Part shown: piece after piece, positions 23,791 to 27,389 of the stretch
Layout: every line of letters begins with the position of its first letter
How positions within the stretch are numbered: the stretch's first letter is position 1
NCBI GenBank assembly: GCA_900316745.1
Contig: ONEB01000010.1
Span: 1 to 64,000, forward strand
Origin: an uncultured Eubacteriales bacterium
GTDB taxonomy: Bacteria > Bacillota > Clostridia > Oscillospirales > Oscillospiraceae
Length of the DNA stretch: 64,000 nucleotides
Direction of reading: 5' to 3'
Translations under genes and position numbers: made by a program
Notes under the pieces: generated by a model
Told to the model about the DNA's origin: nothing
Seen by the model: the letters and a program-made list of their open reading frames with translations, nothing else
Databases searched by the model: none

Positions 23791-25488
23791 ATGGAAATTC
23801 TGAAATTCAATCAGGATGCTTGCAAAAACTGTTATAAGTGCGTGCGTTACTGCCCGGTCAAATCCATGCGTGTGTACAAGGGCCTGCCGCAGATCATTCA
23901 CAATGAGTGCATCGTATGCGGCAACTGCGTGAGTGTTTGCCCGCAACACGCCAAGTATGTGGTGAGCGAGGTCAAGCGCATCAAGGAGCTCATCCGCGCA
24001 GGGAAGCAGGTCGTTGCGAGCGTGGACTCCACCTATCTTGCCTACTTTGAGACGCCCGGCTTCTCCGGCGTGCGGCAGGCGCTGCGCACGCTCGGCATGT
24101 CCGAGGCGTATGAGACGGCAGAGGGCGCGCAGCTGGTCGAGCGCCAGCTCGAGATCCTTGTCTCCCGCGCCGAGGGCAGGCCCGTCATCACGTCCGGCTG
24201 CCCGTCGATCGTGCTCTACGCCGAGAAGCACTTCCCGGAGGCGCTGCCGTATCTCGCGCCGGTCCTGTCCCCGATGCAGGCGCACGCGCAGATCCTGCGC
24301 CAGCGCTGCCCGGGCGCCGTGATCGTCTATATCAGCCCCTGCATCGCCCGCAAGGAGGAGACCAAGGACTTCGAGAGCGTGGGCGCGGACTATGCGATCA
24401 CGTTTGATGAGCTCGCCGCATGGATGGCAGAAGCGGGCGTGAAGGTGCCCGCGGATGTGGAGCCCGATGAGCCGAAGATCTCGCGCGGCTATGTCGTCAC
24501 CGGCGGCGTCGAGGACGGCATGACCCATCTGATCGGCGTGGACTATCTCGCGGTCGATACGCTTGATGACTGCATCAAGGTCATGAAGTGCGTCGCAGAC
24601 GGCGGCCTGACCGACTGTGTGATCGAGATGTCCGCCTGCCACGGCAACTGCATCGGCGGCATGGTGTTCTCCCGCAAGGATCGCAACCTGCTGGAATCCC
24701 GCAAGCGTATCGAGAACGCGTCGGCGTACAACGGCGGCGACTACGACATCTCCGAGCGCATCGACCTATATCGCGCCATGGAGGATCACCACATCCGCAA
24801 GGAAGAGGACGTTCCCGACAGCGCCATCACCGGCATCCTGCGCAAGATGGGCAAATTCACGGCTGAGGATGAGATCGACTGCGGCCTGTGCGGCTATGCC
24901 ACCTGCCGCGAAAGCGCGCGGGCAATCTATGAGGGACGCGCCGAGGTCAGCATGTGCCTGCCCTATATGAAGGAGAAGGCGGAGACCTACTCCGAGAAGA
25001 TCATCAACGTCTCCCCGGAGGGCATCATCACCGTCAGCAAAAAGCTCAAGGTCAAGCAGATCAACAACGCCGCCTGCCGCATCTTCGGCATCAAGGACCC
25101 CTCGGACATCATCGGCTATCCTGTCAGCCGCATCATGGATGAATATGATTTCGTCAAGCTCATGAGCATTGACGATACGCAGTATACGGACCAAATCTTC
25201 CTTGCTGAATACAACGTCTACCTCGAGCGGATCTTCATCTGCGACCCGCAGCGCACGATGTTCACCTGTATCATGCGCGACGTGACCCGCTCCCGTCAGC
25301 GCAAGAGCCAGGTGCAGAAGACCAAGCTCCACGCGGCGGACATTGCCGACAACATCGCCGACAAGCAGCTGCGCATCGTACATGAGATCGCAAGCCTCCT
25401 CGGCGAGACCGCCGCGGAGACAAAGGTTGCCGTGCACGATCTGAAGGAAGCGATCCTGCTGGATGAGGATGATGACGATGCGGAATGA
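23791..25488 (+). CDS. [FeFe]-hydrogenase-like redox sensor with ferredoxin, Fe-S and PAS domains (HydS/HsfB-like)
   Basis: A 565-residue multi-domain protein. Residues 11-50 form two [4Fe-4S] ferredoxin motifs (Cys 11, 14, 17, 21 and 40, 43, 46, 50). Residues about 70-300 are an H-cluster-type domain: TSGCP (134-138), SPCIARKEE (182-190) and ACHGNC (282-287). The four cluster Cys are kept (137, 184, 283, 287), but the proton-shuttle Cys of TSCCP is Gly136. A further Fe-S motif (Cys 364, 367, 372, 389) and a PAS domain (about 402-500) follow. Loss of that Cys plus a PAS tail is the pattern of sensory group C hydrogenases, so I infer a redox/H2 sensor rather than a catalytic enzyme. GGAGG lies eight bases before the start. 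It overlaps a phosphatase gene, its probable output. Confidence 0.88.
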   Translation: MEILKFNQDACKNCYKCVRYCPVKSMRVYKGLPQIIHNECIVCGNCVSVCPQHAKYVVSEVKRIKELIRAGKQVVASVDSTYLAYFETPGFSGVRQALRTLGMSEAYETAEGAQLVERQLEILVSRAEGRPVITSGCPSIVLYAEKHFPEALPYLAPVLSPMQAHAQILRQRCPGAVIVYISPCIARKEETKDFESVGADYAITFDELAAWMAEAGVKVPADVEPDEPKISRGYVVTGGVEDGMTHLIGVDYLAVDTLDDCIKVMKCVADGGLTDCVIEMSACHGNCIGGMVFSRKDRNLLESRKRIENASAYNGGDYDISERIDLYRAMEDHHIRKEEDVPDSAITGILRKMGKFTAEDEIDCGLCGYATCRESARAIYEGRAEVSMCLPYMKEKAETYSEKIINVSPEGIITVSKKLKVKQINNAACRIFGIKDPSDIIGYPVSRIMDEYDFVKLMSIDDTQYTDQIFLAEYNVYLERIFICDPQRTMFTCIMRDVTRSRQRKSQVQKTKLHAADIADNIADKQLRIVHEIASLLGETAAETKVAVHDLKEAILLDEDDDDAE

Positions 25489-26656
25489 TAAGCTTCGAAA
25501 CAAAACCCTGGTCTGGGACATCGGCTTTGTGACCCGGTGCAAGAACGGGGAGACCATCTGCGGCGACCACTGCGTCATCAACAGCGACGTCGAAAAAACG
25601 ATCGTCCTCTCCGACGGGCTCGGCAGCGGCGTAAAGGCGAACATTCTCTCCACGCTGACAGCCAAGATGCTCGCGCGCATGCTCGAGGGCAACGTGCCGC
25701 TTGACGAGTGTGTCACCACAGTCGCCGAGACGCTCCCGATGTGCAAGGACCGGAAGCTCGCCTACGCCACGTTCACGATCGTGGAGACCGCCGGTCAGGC
25801 GGTCACGCTCGTGCAGTACGATAATCCCCGTGCGGTGTATATCCATGACGGAAAGGTGCAGAAATACGGCTACACAGCGCACTTCATTCAGGACAAGGAG
25901 CTGCACGAAAGCCGCTTCCAGTTCAGCGCCGGCGACATGCTGATTCTCTTCAGCGACGGCGTGGCGGAGGCCGGACGCGGTCTGACCACGGTGTCCGGCT
26001 GGCCGGAGGACGAGATGCACGATTTCATGGAGCGCAACTATACGCCCGACTGCTCCGCGCAGAAGATGGCAGCGCTGATCCTCTCGTGCGTCCAGTCTCT
26101 GGATCTGGACGTCATGCACGATGATACGACCATCGCCGTGCTGCGCCTGCGCCCGCGCATGGCGGCAAACGTCATGATCGGACCTCCGGAGAACAAGGAC
26201 GACGATCTCGGGACGATGCGCCTGTTCTTCGCCAAGGAGGGCAAGCACGCCGTCTGCGGCGGCACGACCGCAAAGGCGGTTGCAAACCACCTCGGCGCGC
26301 GCGTGCGCGTCCTGCCCGACACGGGCACGGAAGAGGTTCCGCCCATGAGCGAGATCACCGGCGTCGACCTCGTCACCGAGGGCGCCGTCACGCTGCAGGA
26401 GACGATCCGACTCATTGAGCTCTATCAGAAAGACGGCCTGCTCACGCTCGAGCTTGAGCGCCGCAAGGACGGCGCTGCAAAGCTGGCAAAGCTTCTTTGC
26501 GAGGAGTCGACGGAGGTCAACATCCTCTTCGGCAACGCCTCGAACAGCGCCATGGACGATACGGAATTCAGCTTCTCGCACAAGCTTCAGCTCATGCAGC
26601 AGCTGCAGACCGTGCTGGAGGCTGCGGGAAAGCGTGTGAAAATCAGCCTCTGCTGA
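25478..26656 (+). CDS. SpoIIE-type PP2C protein phosphatase with extra C-terminal domain
   Basis: About 392 residues. The PP2C/SpoIIE core spans about 10-215: a GDHC acidic start, LSDGLGSGVKANILS with the metal-binding Asp, FSDGVAEAG, and HDDTTIAVLRL. The remaining 170 residues (GGTTAKAVANHLG, then an alpha/beta stretch) are not a domain I recognise. Several ATGs (25463-25478) are in frame; 25478 is preferred because the AGG at 25466-25468 is best placed. The gene overlaps the hydrogenase-like sensor by 11 bases, so the phosphatase is likely its output partner, acting on a phosphorylated regulator not seen here. Confidence 0.85.
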   Translation: MRNDKLRNKTLVWDIGFVTRCKNGETICGDHCVINSDVEKTIVLSDGLGSGVKANILSTLTAKMLARMLEGNVPLDECVTTVAETLPMCKDRKLAYATFTIVETAGQAVTLVQYDNPRAVYIHDGKVQKYGYTAHFIQDKELHESRFQFSAGDMLILFSDGVAEAGRGLTTVSGWPEDEMHDFMERNYTPDCSAQKMAALILSCVQSLDLDVMHDDTTIAVLRLRPRMAANVMIGPPENKDDDLGTMRLFFAKEGKHAVCGGTTAKAVANHLGARVRVLPDTGTEEVPPMSEITGVDLVTEGAVTLQETIRLIELYQKDGLLTLELERRKDGAAKLAKLLCEESTEVNILFGNASNSAMDDTEFSFSHKLQLMQQLQTVLEAAGKRVKISLC

Positions 26657-26681: not shown

Positions 26682-27389
26682 ATGACCCGACGAACCCGGA
26701 CCATCCTCATCATCGTGATCCTGATTCTCGCGCTCATCATCGGCGGCTATTTCTATTACCGCGCGCATTTTCAGGTCTATGTCGATACCGCGCGGATGCT
26801 CGACTCCGTCTATAACGCCGAAAAATCCGACATCAGCTACACCGTTGCGCTCAACGGAAAAGAGCTGAATGTCAAATTCCGCACCGTGAAATTCCCGGTC
26901 GGGGACGGCGGGAGCGCCATGAAGATCGATGTGGAGGGGGATTATCTCTCTCATACTTTCTATAAGGTCAACGGGCGCAGCTACGACGACGAAAACGCGC
27001 TCGAGCGGGTCATCCCGAAAAACTTTATGAGCCTGCTGCAATGGGGCGCGGACGTATACAGCTCCGATCTTTCCATTGACCGCATCCGCGACGGCGCGCG
27101 CACGGTCTATACGGTCCAGGTTCCGGACAGCATGGTACAGTCCTTCATGGATCGCTATCTGGAGGGACTGGACAAACTGAATCTGACGTATTCCGACTGC
27201 ACGATGTATCTCACCACCGTGGACGGACAGGTTTCGGAGCTGACGCTGCAGGGCAATACAAAATACAAAGTGCTTGTCAGAGAGGCGAGCACCATGATCA
27301 CCGTGCGTGCGCAGGTGAATGCCGTCGGCGACGCGGTCAAAGTGCCGTCGCTGCCGCAGGACGTTCAGTTCGCCATGCACAGTACATAA
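26682..27389 (+). CDS. membrane-anchored hypothetical protein
   Basis: A 235-residue protein with a basic N-terminus (MTRRTRT) and one membrane helix at about 8-26; the rest is predicted outside the cell and beta-rich, with no cysteine-based or catalytic motif visible apart from a single Cys. An AAAGGAG site precedes the ATG. It lies 25 bases after the phosphatase and 25 before murT, so it could belong to either unit. I do not recognise the family. Confidence 0.75.
   Translation: MTRRTRTILIIVILILALIIGGYFYYRAHFQVYVDTARMLDSVYNAEKSDISYTVALNGKELNVKFRTVKFPVGDGGSAMKIDVEGDYLSHTFYKVNGRSYDDENALERVIPKNFMSLLQWGADVYSSDLSIDRIRDGARTVYTVQVPDSMVQSFMDRYLEGLDKLNLTYSDCTMYLTTVDGQVSELTLQGNTKYKVLVREASTMITVRAQVNAVGDAVKVPSLPQDVQFAMHST

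What the first reader, a model, noticed from the sequence alone, without database searches (positions are those of the whole stretch)
23791..26656. Sensory [FeFe]-hydrogenase protein coupled to a SpoIIE-type phosphatase with an unassigned domain
The H-cluster motifs keep all four cluster cysteines (137, 184, 283, 287), but the proton-shuttle Cys of TSCCP is Gly136; the protein ends in an Fe-S motif and a PAS domain. Group C sensory hydrogenases have this trait. Its stop overlaps a PP2C/SpoIIE phosphatase whose C-terminal 170 residues I cannot assign. Together they look like a redox- or H2-sensing switch acting through dephosphorylation. No substrate or hydrogenase operon is nearby, so the output is open.
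Basis: partly seen in the sequence, partly recalled or inferred. Interest (0 to 1): 0.72.

Follow-up and report, generated by a model that had tools for sequence, protein, structure and literature searches.

The report
Orphan hydrogenase-like sensor and phosphatase pair
A bacterium related to gut fermenters carries a known kind of two-gene switch, a hydrogenase-shaped sensor next to a protein phosphatase, but here it has lost its usual partner hydrogenase and a key active-site residue, in a genus where the enzyme that normally makes the sensor's metal cofactor was not found.

Summary
Confirmed: window 23791-25488 encodes a 565-aa protein with two [4Fe-4S] motifs, an [FeFe]-hydrogenase H-domain (Gly136; Cys137/184/283/287), a Cx2Cx4Cx16C motif, a PAS domain and a conserved C-terminal helix; it overlaps a 397-aa SpoIIE-type phosphatase. 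This matches HydDB class C3 ('phosphatase-linked, putative'): the kind is known.

The variant is unusual. Relatives often place the pair beside a group B hydrogenase, [2Fe-2S] proteins, AdhE, Rex or an APH-like kinase; the window has none. Gly136 is not a C3 trait: 77 of 91 distinct sensors sampled keep Cys, and Gly maps to one change, in this genus. HydG scored over cut-off in 0 of 10 genus genomes; HydE, HydF and HydG were all undetected in the window's draft genome. The sensor's cofactor is therefore uncertain.

In passing: where HydE occurs without HydG, nitrogenase-like NifH/D/K proteins occur too, often in the same cluster: a candidate HydG-independent route to the H-cluster.

The parts
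23791..25488 (+). Sensor protein, group C (C3-type) [FeFe]-hydrogenase homologue, 565 aa
   Evidence: ORF; Pfam; orthologues with similar starts and same order
23803..23943 (+). Two [4Fe-4S] ferredoxin-type motifs (residues 5-51; Cys 11,14,17,21 and 40,43,46,50)
   Evidence: Pfam Fer4_10; cysteine positions
24061..24660 (+). H-domain (residues 91-290)
   Evidence: Fe_hyd_lg_C, 132.9 bits
24190..24204 (+). L1 motif T-S-G136-C137-P: the position of CpI Cys299 (proton shuttle) is Gly, the cluster Cys is kept
   Evidence: numbering; alignment; one change on the tree
24334..24360 (+). L2 motif SPC184IARKEE; the CpI Lys358 position is Arg
24625..24651 (+). L3 motif EMSAC283HGNC287
24874..24963 (+). 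C-terminal FeS domain, Cys364-x2-Cys367-x4-Cys372-x16-Cys389
   Evidence: PF04060; positions
24994..25158 (+). PAS domain (residues 402-456)
   Evidence: PAS_8
25291..25446 (+). C-terminal segment (residues 501-552) with strongly conserved IASLLGETxAET; proposed output/docking element
   Evidence: mean column conservation 0.72 against 0.58 for the PAS stretch and 0.62 for the H-domain, 91 sensors
25463..26656 (+). SpoIIE-type PP2C phosphatase, 397 aa, overlapping the sensor gene
   Evidence: Pfam; model pLDDT 88.0; Foldseek 3pu9 E 1.9e-14 and SpoIIE 5ucg E 1.2e-13
25601..26149 (+). PP2C/SpoIIE catalytic domain as matched by Pfam (residues 47-229); D35, D51, D165, D220, D221 of the protein are invariant
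   Evidence: invariant columns of A3, 39 sequences
26162..26656 (+). C-terminal alpha/beta domain (residues 234-397), no sequence family

Best explanation
This is an orphaned, active-site-altered member of the phosphatase-linked (C3) sensory [FeFe]-hydrogenase class. Shown: domain order, intact metal-ligand cysteines, conserved PP2C metal-site Asp residues, gene pairing, purifying selection, and loss of the shuttle Cys that maps to one change. Inferred mechanism: the H-domain and its Fe-S clusters report H2 or the reduced state of the electron carriers; the change passes through the FeS/PAS region to the strongly conserved C-terminal helix, which binds the phosphatase and switches it; the phosphatase then dephosphorylates a Ser/Thr-phosphorylated regulator encoded elsewhere. 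The C-terminal alpha/beta domain probably binds a small ligand (nucleotide-like) as a second input. In relatives the pair plausibly controls fermentative H2/ethanol genes; here the target is no longer encoded next to it. Within the genus the signal could be H2 at an H-cluster that cannot turn over fast, or only the redox state of Fe-S clusters. I put these at about 0.5 and 0.35.
For: Domains. Cysteines and numbering. C3 definition: PMC5037454 Table 1 (passages); the Cx2Cx4Cx16C motif is the one reported for groups C/D (PMC8163306, passages). Pairing: sensor or its end adjacent in 79 of 79 named loci with enough upstream sequence (the script counted 78 of 80; L134 is adjacent by its coordinates, L107 has only 177 upstream bases). 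Context in relatives. R. albus: a sensory group C hydrogenase with a putative phosphatase subunit is co-transcribed with the A1 hydrogenase and the alcohol/aldehyde dehydrogenase, in an eight-gene cluster 111-fold down in co-culture (PMC6776011, passages). PP2C fold and Asp residues. C-terminal helix conservation. In the C-terminal domain, several invariant residues (GPP, GG, EG, G of GxAxN) directly follow strands in the model.
Against: No experiment on H2 sensing or phosphatase regulation in a C3 system was seen in my searches. HydG was under cut-off in 10 of 10 genus genomes, and HydE/HydF were not found in the window's genome, so a complete H-cluster is doubtful; yet six genomes outside the genus with Cys-type (five) or Ala-type (one) sensors also lack HydG, HydE and HydF (G012, G014, G016, G049, G056, G059), so maturase loss alone does not explain the Gly. 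The window genome is a 92.5%-complete draft. No substrate, kinase or hydrogenase lies beside the pair. For the group D enzyme TamHydS, H2 did not reduce the C-terminal cluster (PMC13104023, passages), which argues against a simple redox relay through that cluster. The structural match of the C-terminal domain is only modestly above background: the tool gives 7 to 8 as a typical best Z for models without a clear match.
Confidence: 0.72

Rival explanations
1. The sensor has no [2Fe] subcluster: it is an Fe-S/PAS redox sensor built on an H-domain scaffold that keeps only the [4Fe-4S] cubane, still acting through the phosphatase.
For: HydG over cut-off in 0 of 10 genus genomes; none of E/F/G over cut-off in the window genome and four others (G001, G004, G006, G009); proton-shuttle Cys lost in the 9 distinct genus sensors aligned (G008 is cut off); the CpI Lys358 position (near the [2Fe] site, from recall) changed to Arg in the window and five other distinct genus sensors.
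Against: All four H-cluster cysteines stay invariant (93 of 93 rows). Group A and B hydrogenases in the genus keep intact L1 and L2 motifs (15 of 15 loci read from 8 genomes; own L001-L003), so some maturation route is likely.
Confidence: 0.35
2. The pair is a decaying remnant left after loss of the linked group B hydrogenase.
For: No operon partners in the window; Gly and Arg substitutions in the H-domain.
Against: Frames are open across the genus; dN/dS 0.05-0.13 for close pairs and 0.20-0.38 for the window against relatives; PP2C Asp residues and Fe-S ligands are invariant.
Confidence: 0.05
3. The protein is an enzyme or electron-transfer subunit (for example of a bifurcating complex), not a sensor.
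For: Two ferredoxin-type clusters and an H-domain are shared with catalytic enzymes.
Against: No NuoE/NuoF-type partner next to it; PAS plus FeS domain and phosphatase pairing; TIGR group B1 and A models score far below cut-off (158.7 against 450; 73.2 against 405.95).
Confidence: 0.05

Closest known systems
[FeFe]-hydrogenase group C3, phosphatase-linked (putative), HydDB
   Same: H-domain with group C extras (C-terminal Cys4 motif, PAS) next to a Ser/Thr-type phosphatase.
   Different: Cys299 position is Gly (in this sample only in this genus), Lys358 position is Arg, no hydrogenase or fermentation genes next to it, HydG under cut-off in the genus.
Ruminococcus albus sensory group C hydrogenase operon (PMC6776011)
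   Same: Sensory H-domain/PAS protein with a putative phosphatase subunit.
   Different: There it is co-transcribed with a ferredoxin hydrogenase and AdhE; here the downstream neighbours are an unassigned 235-aa protein and MurT/GatD-like genes.
Thermotoga maritima HydS (TmHydS, group C)
   Same: Shuttle Cys replaced by a small residue (Ala131), PAS domain, Ser at the Met497 position as here.
   Different: No phosphatase is mentioned in the passages seen; the Met353 position is Gly there and Met here.
SpoIIE / RsbU-type PP2C phosphatases
   Same: Fold and conserved Asp residues.
   Different: No match to the full SpoIIE equivalog (TIGR02865 45.4 bits against cut-off 490.8); an extra C-terminal alpha/beta domain.
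Molybdopterin-type oxidoreductases (formylmethanofuran dehydrogenase/FhcABCD, complex I, formate hydrogenlyase chains): alpha/beta domain
   Different: No sequence match, Foldseek E 0.012 at best (to an unrelated protein), no Mo/MGD domains around it.

Membership tests
[FeFe]-hydrogenase group C3 | H-domain with the four H-cluster cysteines | tested here: met
[FeFe]-hydrogenase group C3 | C-terminal Cx2Cx4Cx16C cluster motif followed by PAS (group C) | tested here: met
   Cys364/367/372/389; PAS_8; motif definition from PMC8163306
[FeFe]-hydrogenase group C3 | Encoded with a Ser/Thr phosphatase | tested here: met
   SpoIIE/PP2C-type phosphatase gene overlapping the sensor gene; (activity not tested)
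[FeFe]-hydrogenase group C3 | Falls in the HydDB sequence-similarity cluster C3 | not testable with these tools
   HydDB sequences are not on hand; the tree holds only phosphatase-linked sensors and one group B row
[FeFe]-hydrogenase group C3 | Carries a complete H-cluster and senses H2 | tested here: inconclusive
SpoIIE/RsbU-type PP2C phosphatase | PP2C fold with metal-binding Asp residues | tested here: met
   PF07228; D35, D51, D165, D220, D221 invariant in 39 sequences, (their metal role is from recall); Foldseek
Stage II sporulation protein E (TIGR02865 equivalog) | Score over the equivalog cut-off | tested here: not met
   45.4 bits against 490.8
Molybdopterin-oxidoreductase alpha/beta domain (C-terminal domain of the phosphatase) | Same fold | tested here: inconclusive

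The most novel reading that the evidence does not exclude
Hydrogenases in the window's genus, possibly including this sensor, receive an H-cluster made without HydG: a nitrogenase-like NifH/NifD/NifK-type complex, encoded with HydE and HydF, supplies the Fe-CO-CN unit that HydG normally makes. Half of the genus genomes (the window species among them) have lost, or their drafts miss, even that set, and there the sensor may work with Fe-S clusters alone.
Probability: 0.22. Interest if true: 0.92.

Novelty: new variant of a known kind. Interest (0 to 1): 0.52.

Why it matters
C3 systems are catalogued, but I saw no test of one: the output domain, the docking element and the signal are open. The strongly conserved C-terminal helix of the sensor and the modelled C-terminal domain of the phosphatase give concrete targets for an in vitro test. 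A genus whose other hydrogenases look intact, but in which HydG was not found, questions whether HydEFG is the only maturation route, and the linked nitrogenase-like genes make that testable.

Tried and rejected

In one search, 5 of 80 phosphatase loci were skipped by a motif filter; the alignments then used 44 of the 75 that passed (plus the window, L030 and L031) for A2 and 36 of 75 (plus the same three) for A3. In one search one of the four HydG query sequences was dropped because a wrong-strand ORF had been taken for it.
Full report
Observation. Both genes are as described. The sensor (23791-25488) carries two N-terminal [4Fe-4S] motifs, an H-domain (Fe_hyd_lg_C, residues 91-290), the PF04060 FeS domain and a PAS domain; the phosphatase (25463-26656) carries a SpoIIE domain at residues 47-229 and no family match beyond it. 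Numbering from the ATG at 23791 gives Gly136, Cys137, Cys184, Cys283 and Cys287 exactly. The four C-terminal cysteines follow Cx2Cx4Cx16C (364, 367, 372, 389), the motif reported for groups C and D (PMC8163306, passages).

Distribution and selection. The 60 related genomes searched include the window's own. A phosphatase alignable over both domains at 35% identity or more was found in 20: 10 of 10 of the genus and 10 others (in G045 it is split over two contigs and one piece holds a stop). The sensor adjoins it upstream in 19 (in G008 only its end is on the contig); in G045 a sensor-type frame lies just before the first piece by coordinates. In 79 of the 79 loci with enough upstream sequence the sensor, or its end, adjoins the phosphatase (the script counted 78; L134 is adjacent by its coordinates, L107 is cut off). 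dN/dS is 0.05-0.13 for three close genus pairs and 0.20-0.38 for the window against seven genus members, both genes together, so the pair is maintained.

Known class. HydDB defines group C3 as 'Phosphatase-linked (putative)... [quoted passage not shown] In Ruminococcus albus a sensory group C hydrogenase with a putative phosphatase subunit belongs to an eight-gene cluster with the A1 hydrogenase and a bifunctional alcohol/aldehyde dehydrogenase, 111-fold down in co-culture (PMC6776011, passages). The window pair meets the sequence features of this class that I could test; placement in HydDB's own cluster, and function, could not be tested.

What the relatives' neighbourhoods say. In 50 of 75 loci with at least 300 bases of room, a group B hydrogenase begins within 400 bases downstream of the phosphatase; one example scores 566 bits against the curated FeFe_hydrog_B1 model, cut-off 450. 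Upstream on the same strand, within 8 kb, are thioredoxin-like [2Fe-2S] proteins in 46 of 80 loci, AdhE or related dehydrogenases in 20, an APH-like kinase in 15, Rex-like repressors in 12 and LysR regulators in 7. These are similarity clusters named from one or two members each; the [2Fe-2S] cluster also holds seven longer proteins, and flanks differ in length. The window pair has none of these: an Orn/DAP/Arg-type decarboxylase and Lit-like and YhhN proteins lie upstream on the other strand, and an unassigned 235-aa protein, MurT and a GatD-like gene lie downstream. A gene starting like the window's MurT follows the pair in two other genus genomes (G007, G009), but not in G003 (by eye).

The Gly136 change. 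Position 299 (CpI numbering) is Cys in 77 of 93 sensor rows, Gly in 11, Ala in 4, Ser in 1; all four cluster cysteines are kept in 93 of 93. After removal of two duplicates the Gly rows are the window and eight genus members, one clade with SH-aLRT 100, nested among Cys-bearing sensors on a midpoint-rooted tree; the sister row, L058, keeps Cys and a downstream group B hydrogenase. I infer that the genus lost the shuttle Cys and the linked hydrogenase after its split from L058. In sensory hydrogenases at large Cys is rare at this site (17%, PMC10055695, passages), so the trait fits a slow sensor, but it is derived here. The CpI Lys358 position is Arg in the window and five other distinct genus rows.

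Maturation. HydG scored over its curated cut-off in 18 of 60 genomes and in 0 of 10 of the genus, three of which are 93-97% complete besides the 92.5% window genome. Weaker matches in five genus genomes are explained: they lie on their HydE genes. HydE and HydF are over cut-off in 5 of 10 genus genomes and not found in the other 5, the window's included (HydF was sought at E <= 1e-60 there, and at 0.001 in the window genome, where only general GTPase matches under cut-off appeared). Yet group A and B hydrogenases in the genus keep TSCCP and the L2 motif in 15 of 15 loci read from 8 genomes (L3 in 14, cut off in one). Hence either an H-cluster is made without HydG, or these proteins work without it. 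This does not track the Gly change: six genomes outside the genus (G012, G014, G016, G049, G056, G059) have the pair, none of HydE, HydF or HydG over cut-off, and Cys (five) or Ala (one) in the sensor. A draft genome cannot prove absence in the window species.

Proposed mechanism. Steps shown: pairing, intact metal ligands, conserved PP2C Asp residues. Steps inferred: H2 or redox change at the H-domain or Fe-S clusters; transfer through FeS/PAS; contact of the C-terminal segment with the phosphatase. That segment (residues 501-552, with IASLLGETxAET) is better conserved than the PAS stretch and the H-domain (mean column conservation 0.72, 0.58, 0.62 over 91 sensors), as a docking or switch helix should be. 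The substrate is unknown; in relatives the co-encoded kinase and Rex are natural first candidates.

A side finding. In G003 and G002 (window genus) HydF and HydE lie in one gene run with a TM1266-like regulator, a NifH-like protein and two nitrogenase component 1-type proteins, with no HydG. Among the 60 genomes, strong matches (E < 1e-50) to one of these, here called NflK, occur in exactly the nine genomes that have HydE over cut-off but not HydG, and in none of the 18 with HydG or the 33 with HydE under cut-off. Caveats: one of the nine, G034, has a HydG fragment at a contig end beside HydE, so it is probably HydG-positive, and its NflK is only about 35% identical; five of the nine are one genus; in G007 and G028 the nitrogenase-like genes lie on another contig than HydE, and in G052 HydF does; three (G028, G030, G034) showed no HydF and are 63-87% complete; HydG-positive G035 has a more remote NflK (E 2e-27). 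In a wider sample 14 of 394 genomes of the order have NflK at E <= 1e-40. Of the 13 new neighbourhoods read, 7 have HydE in the cluster (4 of them also HydF), 3 more (one genus) have TM1266 and ABC-transporter-type genes without HydE/F, 3 have neither HydE nor HydF nearby (L245, L251, L252), and HydG was seen in 0 of 13 stretches (some stretches end at contig ends). HydG elsewhere in those genomes was not tested. Four paper searches showed no report of this association in the rows listed (titles and abstract starts only, lists capped at 25 of 86, 20 of 54, 4 of 4 and 15 of 102). One paper states that HydE and HydF without HydG gave in vitro activation of about 1% of normal (PMC9431212, passages).

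Verdict. Ordinary in kind (C3), unusual in variant. The open issue that it exposes, how the genus equips its hydrogenase-type proteins without a detectable HydG, is more interesting than the pair itself.

Noticed in passing
L169:5553-11254, L170:1365-7180, L172, L183, L219, L181:597-8525; L240-L244, L248, L249 (outside the window): HydE and often HydF in one cluster with NifH-like and two nitrogenase component 1-like proteins, often a TM1266-like regulator, without HydG in the stretch; candidate HydG-independent H-cluster maturation.
   Followed up: partly
L135-L164 (outside the window): 26 of the 30 group A hydrogenase-like loci fetched as high scorers in relatives read TSCSP: the second Cys of TSCCP (a cluster ligand, from recall) is Ser, in genomes with and without HydG; 3 read TSCCP and one (L142) was not read, a wrong ORF having been taken.
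   Followed up: no
60 related genomes, e.g. G012, G029, G048 (about 100% complete, no HydG over cut-off): 58 of 60 genomes have an [FeFe]-hydrogenase domain over cut-off, but only 18 have HydG and 27 HydE over cut-off.
   Followed up: partly
L117:7053-7802 and 14 other named loci: APH-like kinase (249 aa) encoded upstream of the sensor-phosphatase pair; a possible kinase opposing the phosphatase.
   Followed up: no
L033:1363-2181: A C3-like sensor paired with a 272-aa phosphatase frame matched only over the SpoIIE domain, apparently without the C-terminal domain.
   Followed up: no
window 26682-27389 +: 235-aa protein with an N-terminal hydrophobic stretch and no Pfam match, directly downstream of the phosphatase.
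   Followed up: no
L113, L124 (Candidatus Coprenecus, Bacteroidota), L078, L121 (Spirochaetota), L129 (Flexilinea, Chloroflexota): The sensor-phosphatase pair occurs outside Bacillota, by the labels of the records.
   Followed up: no
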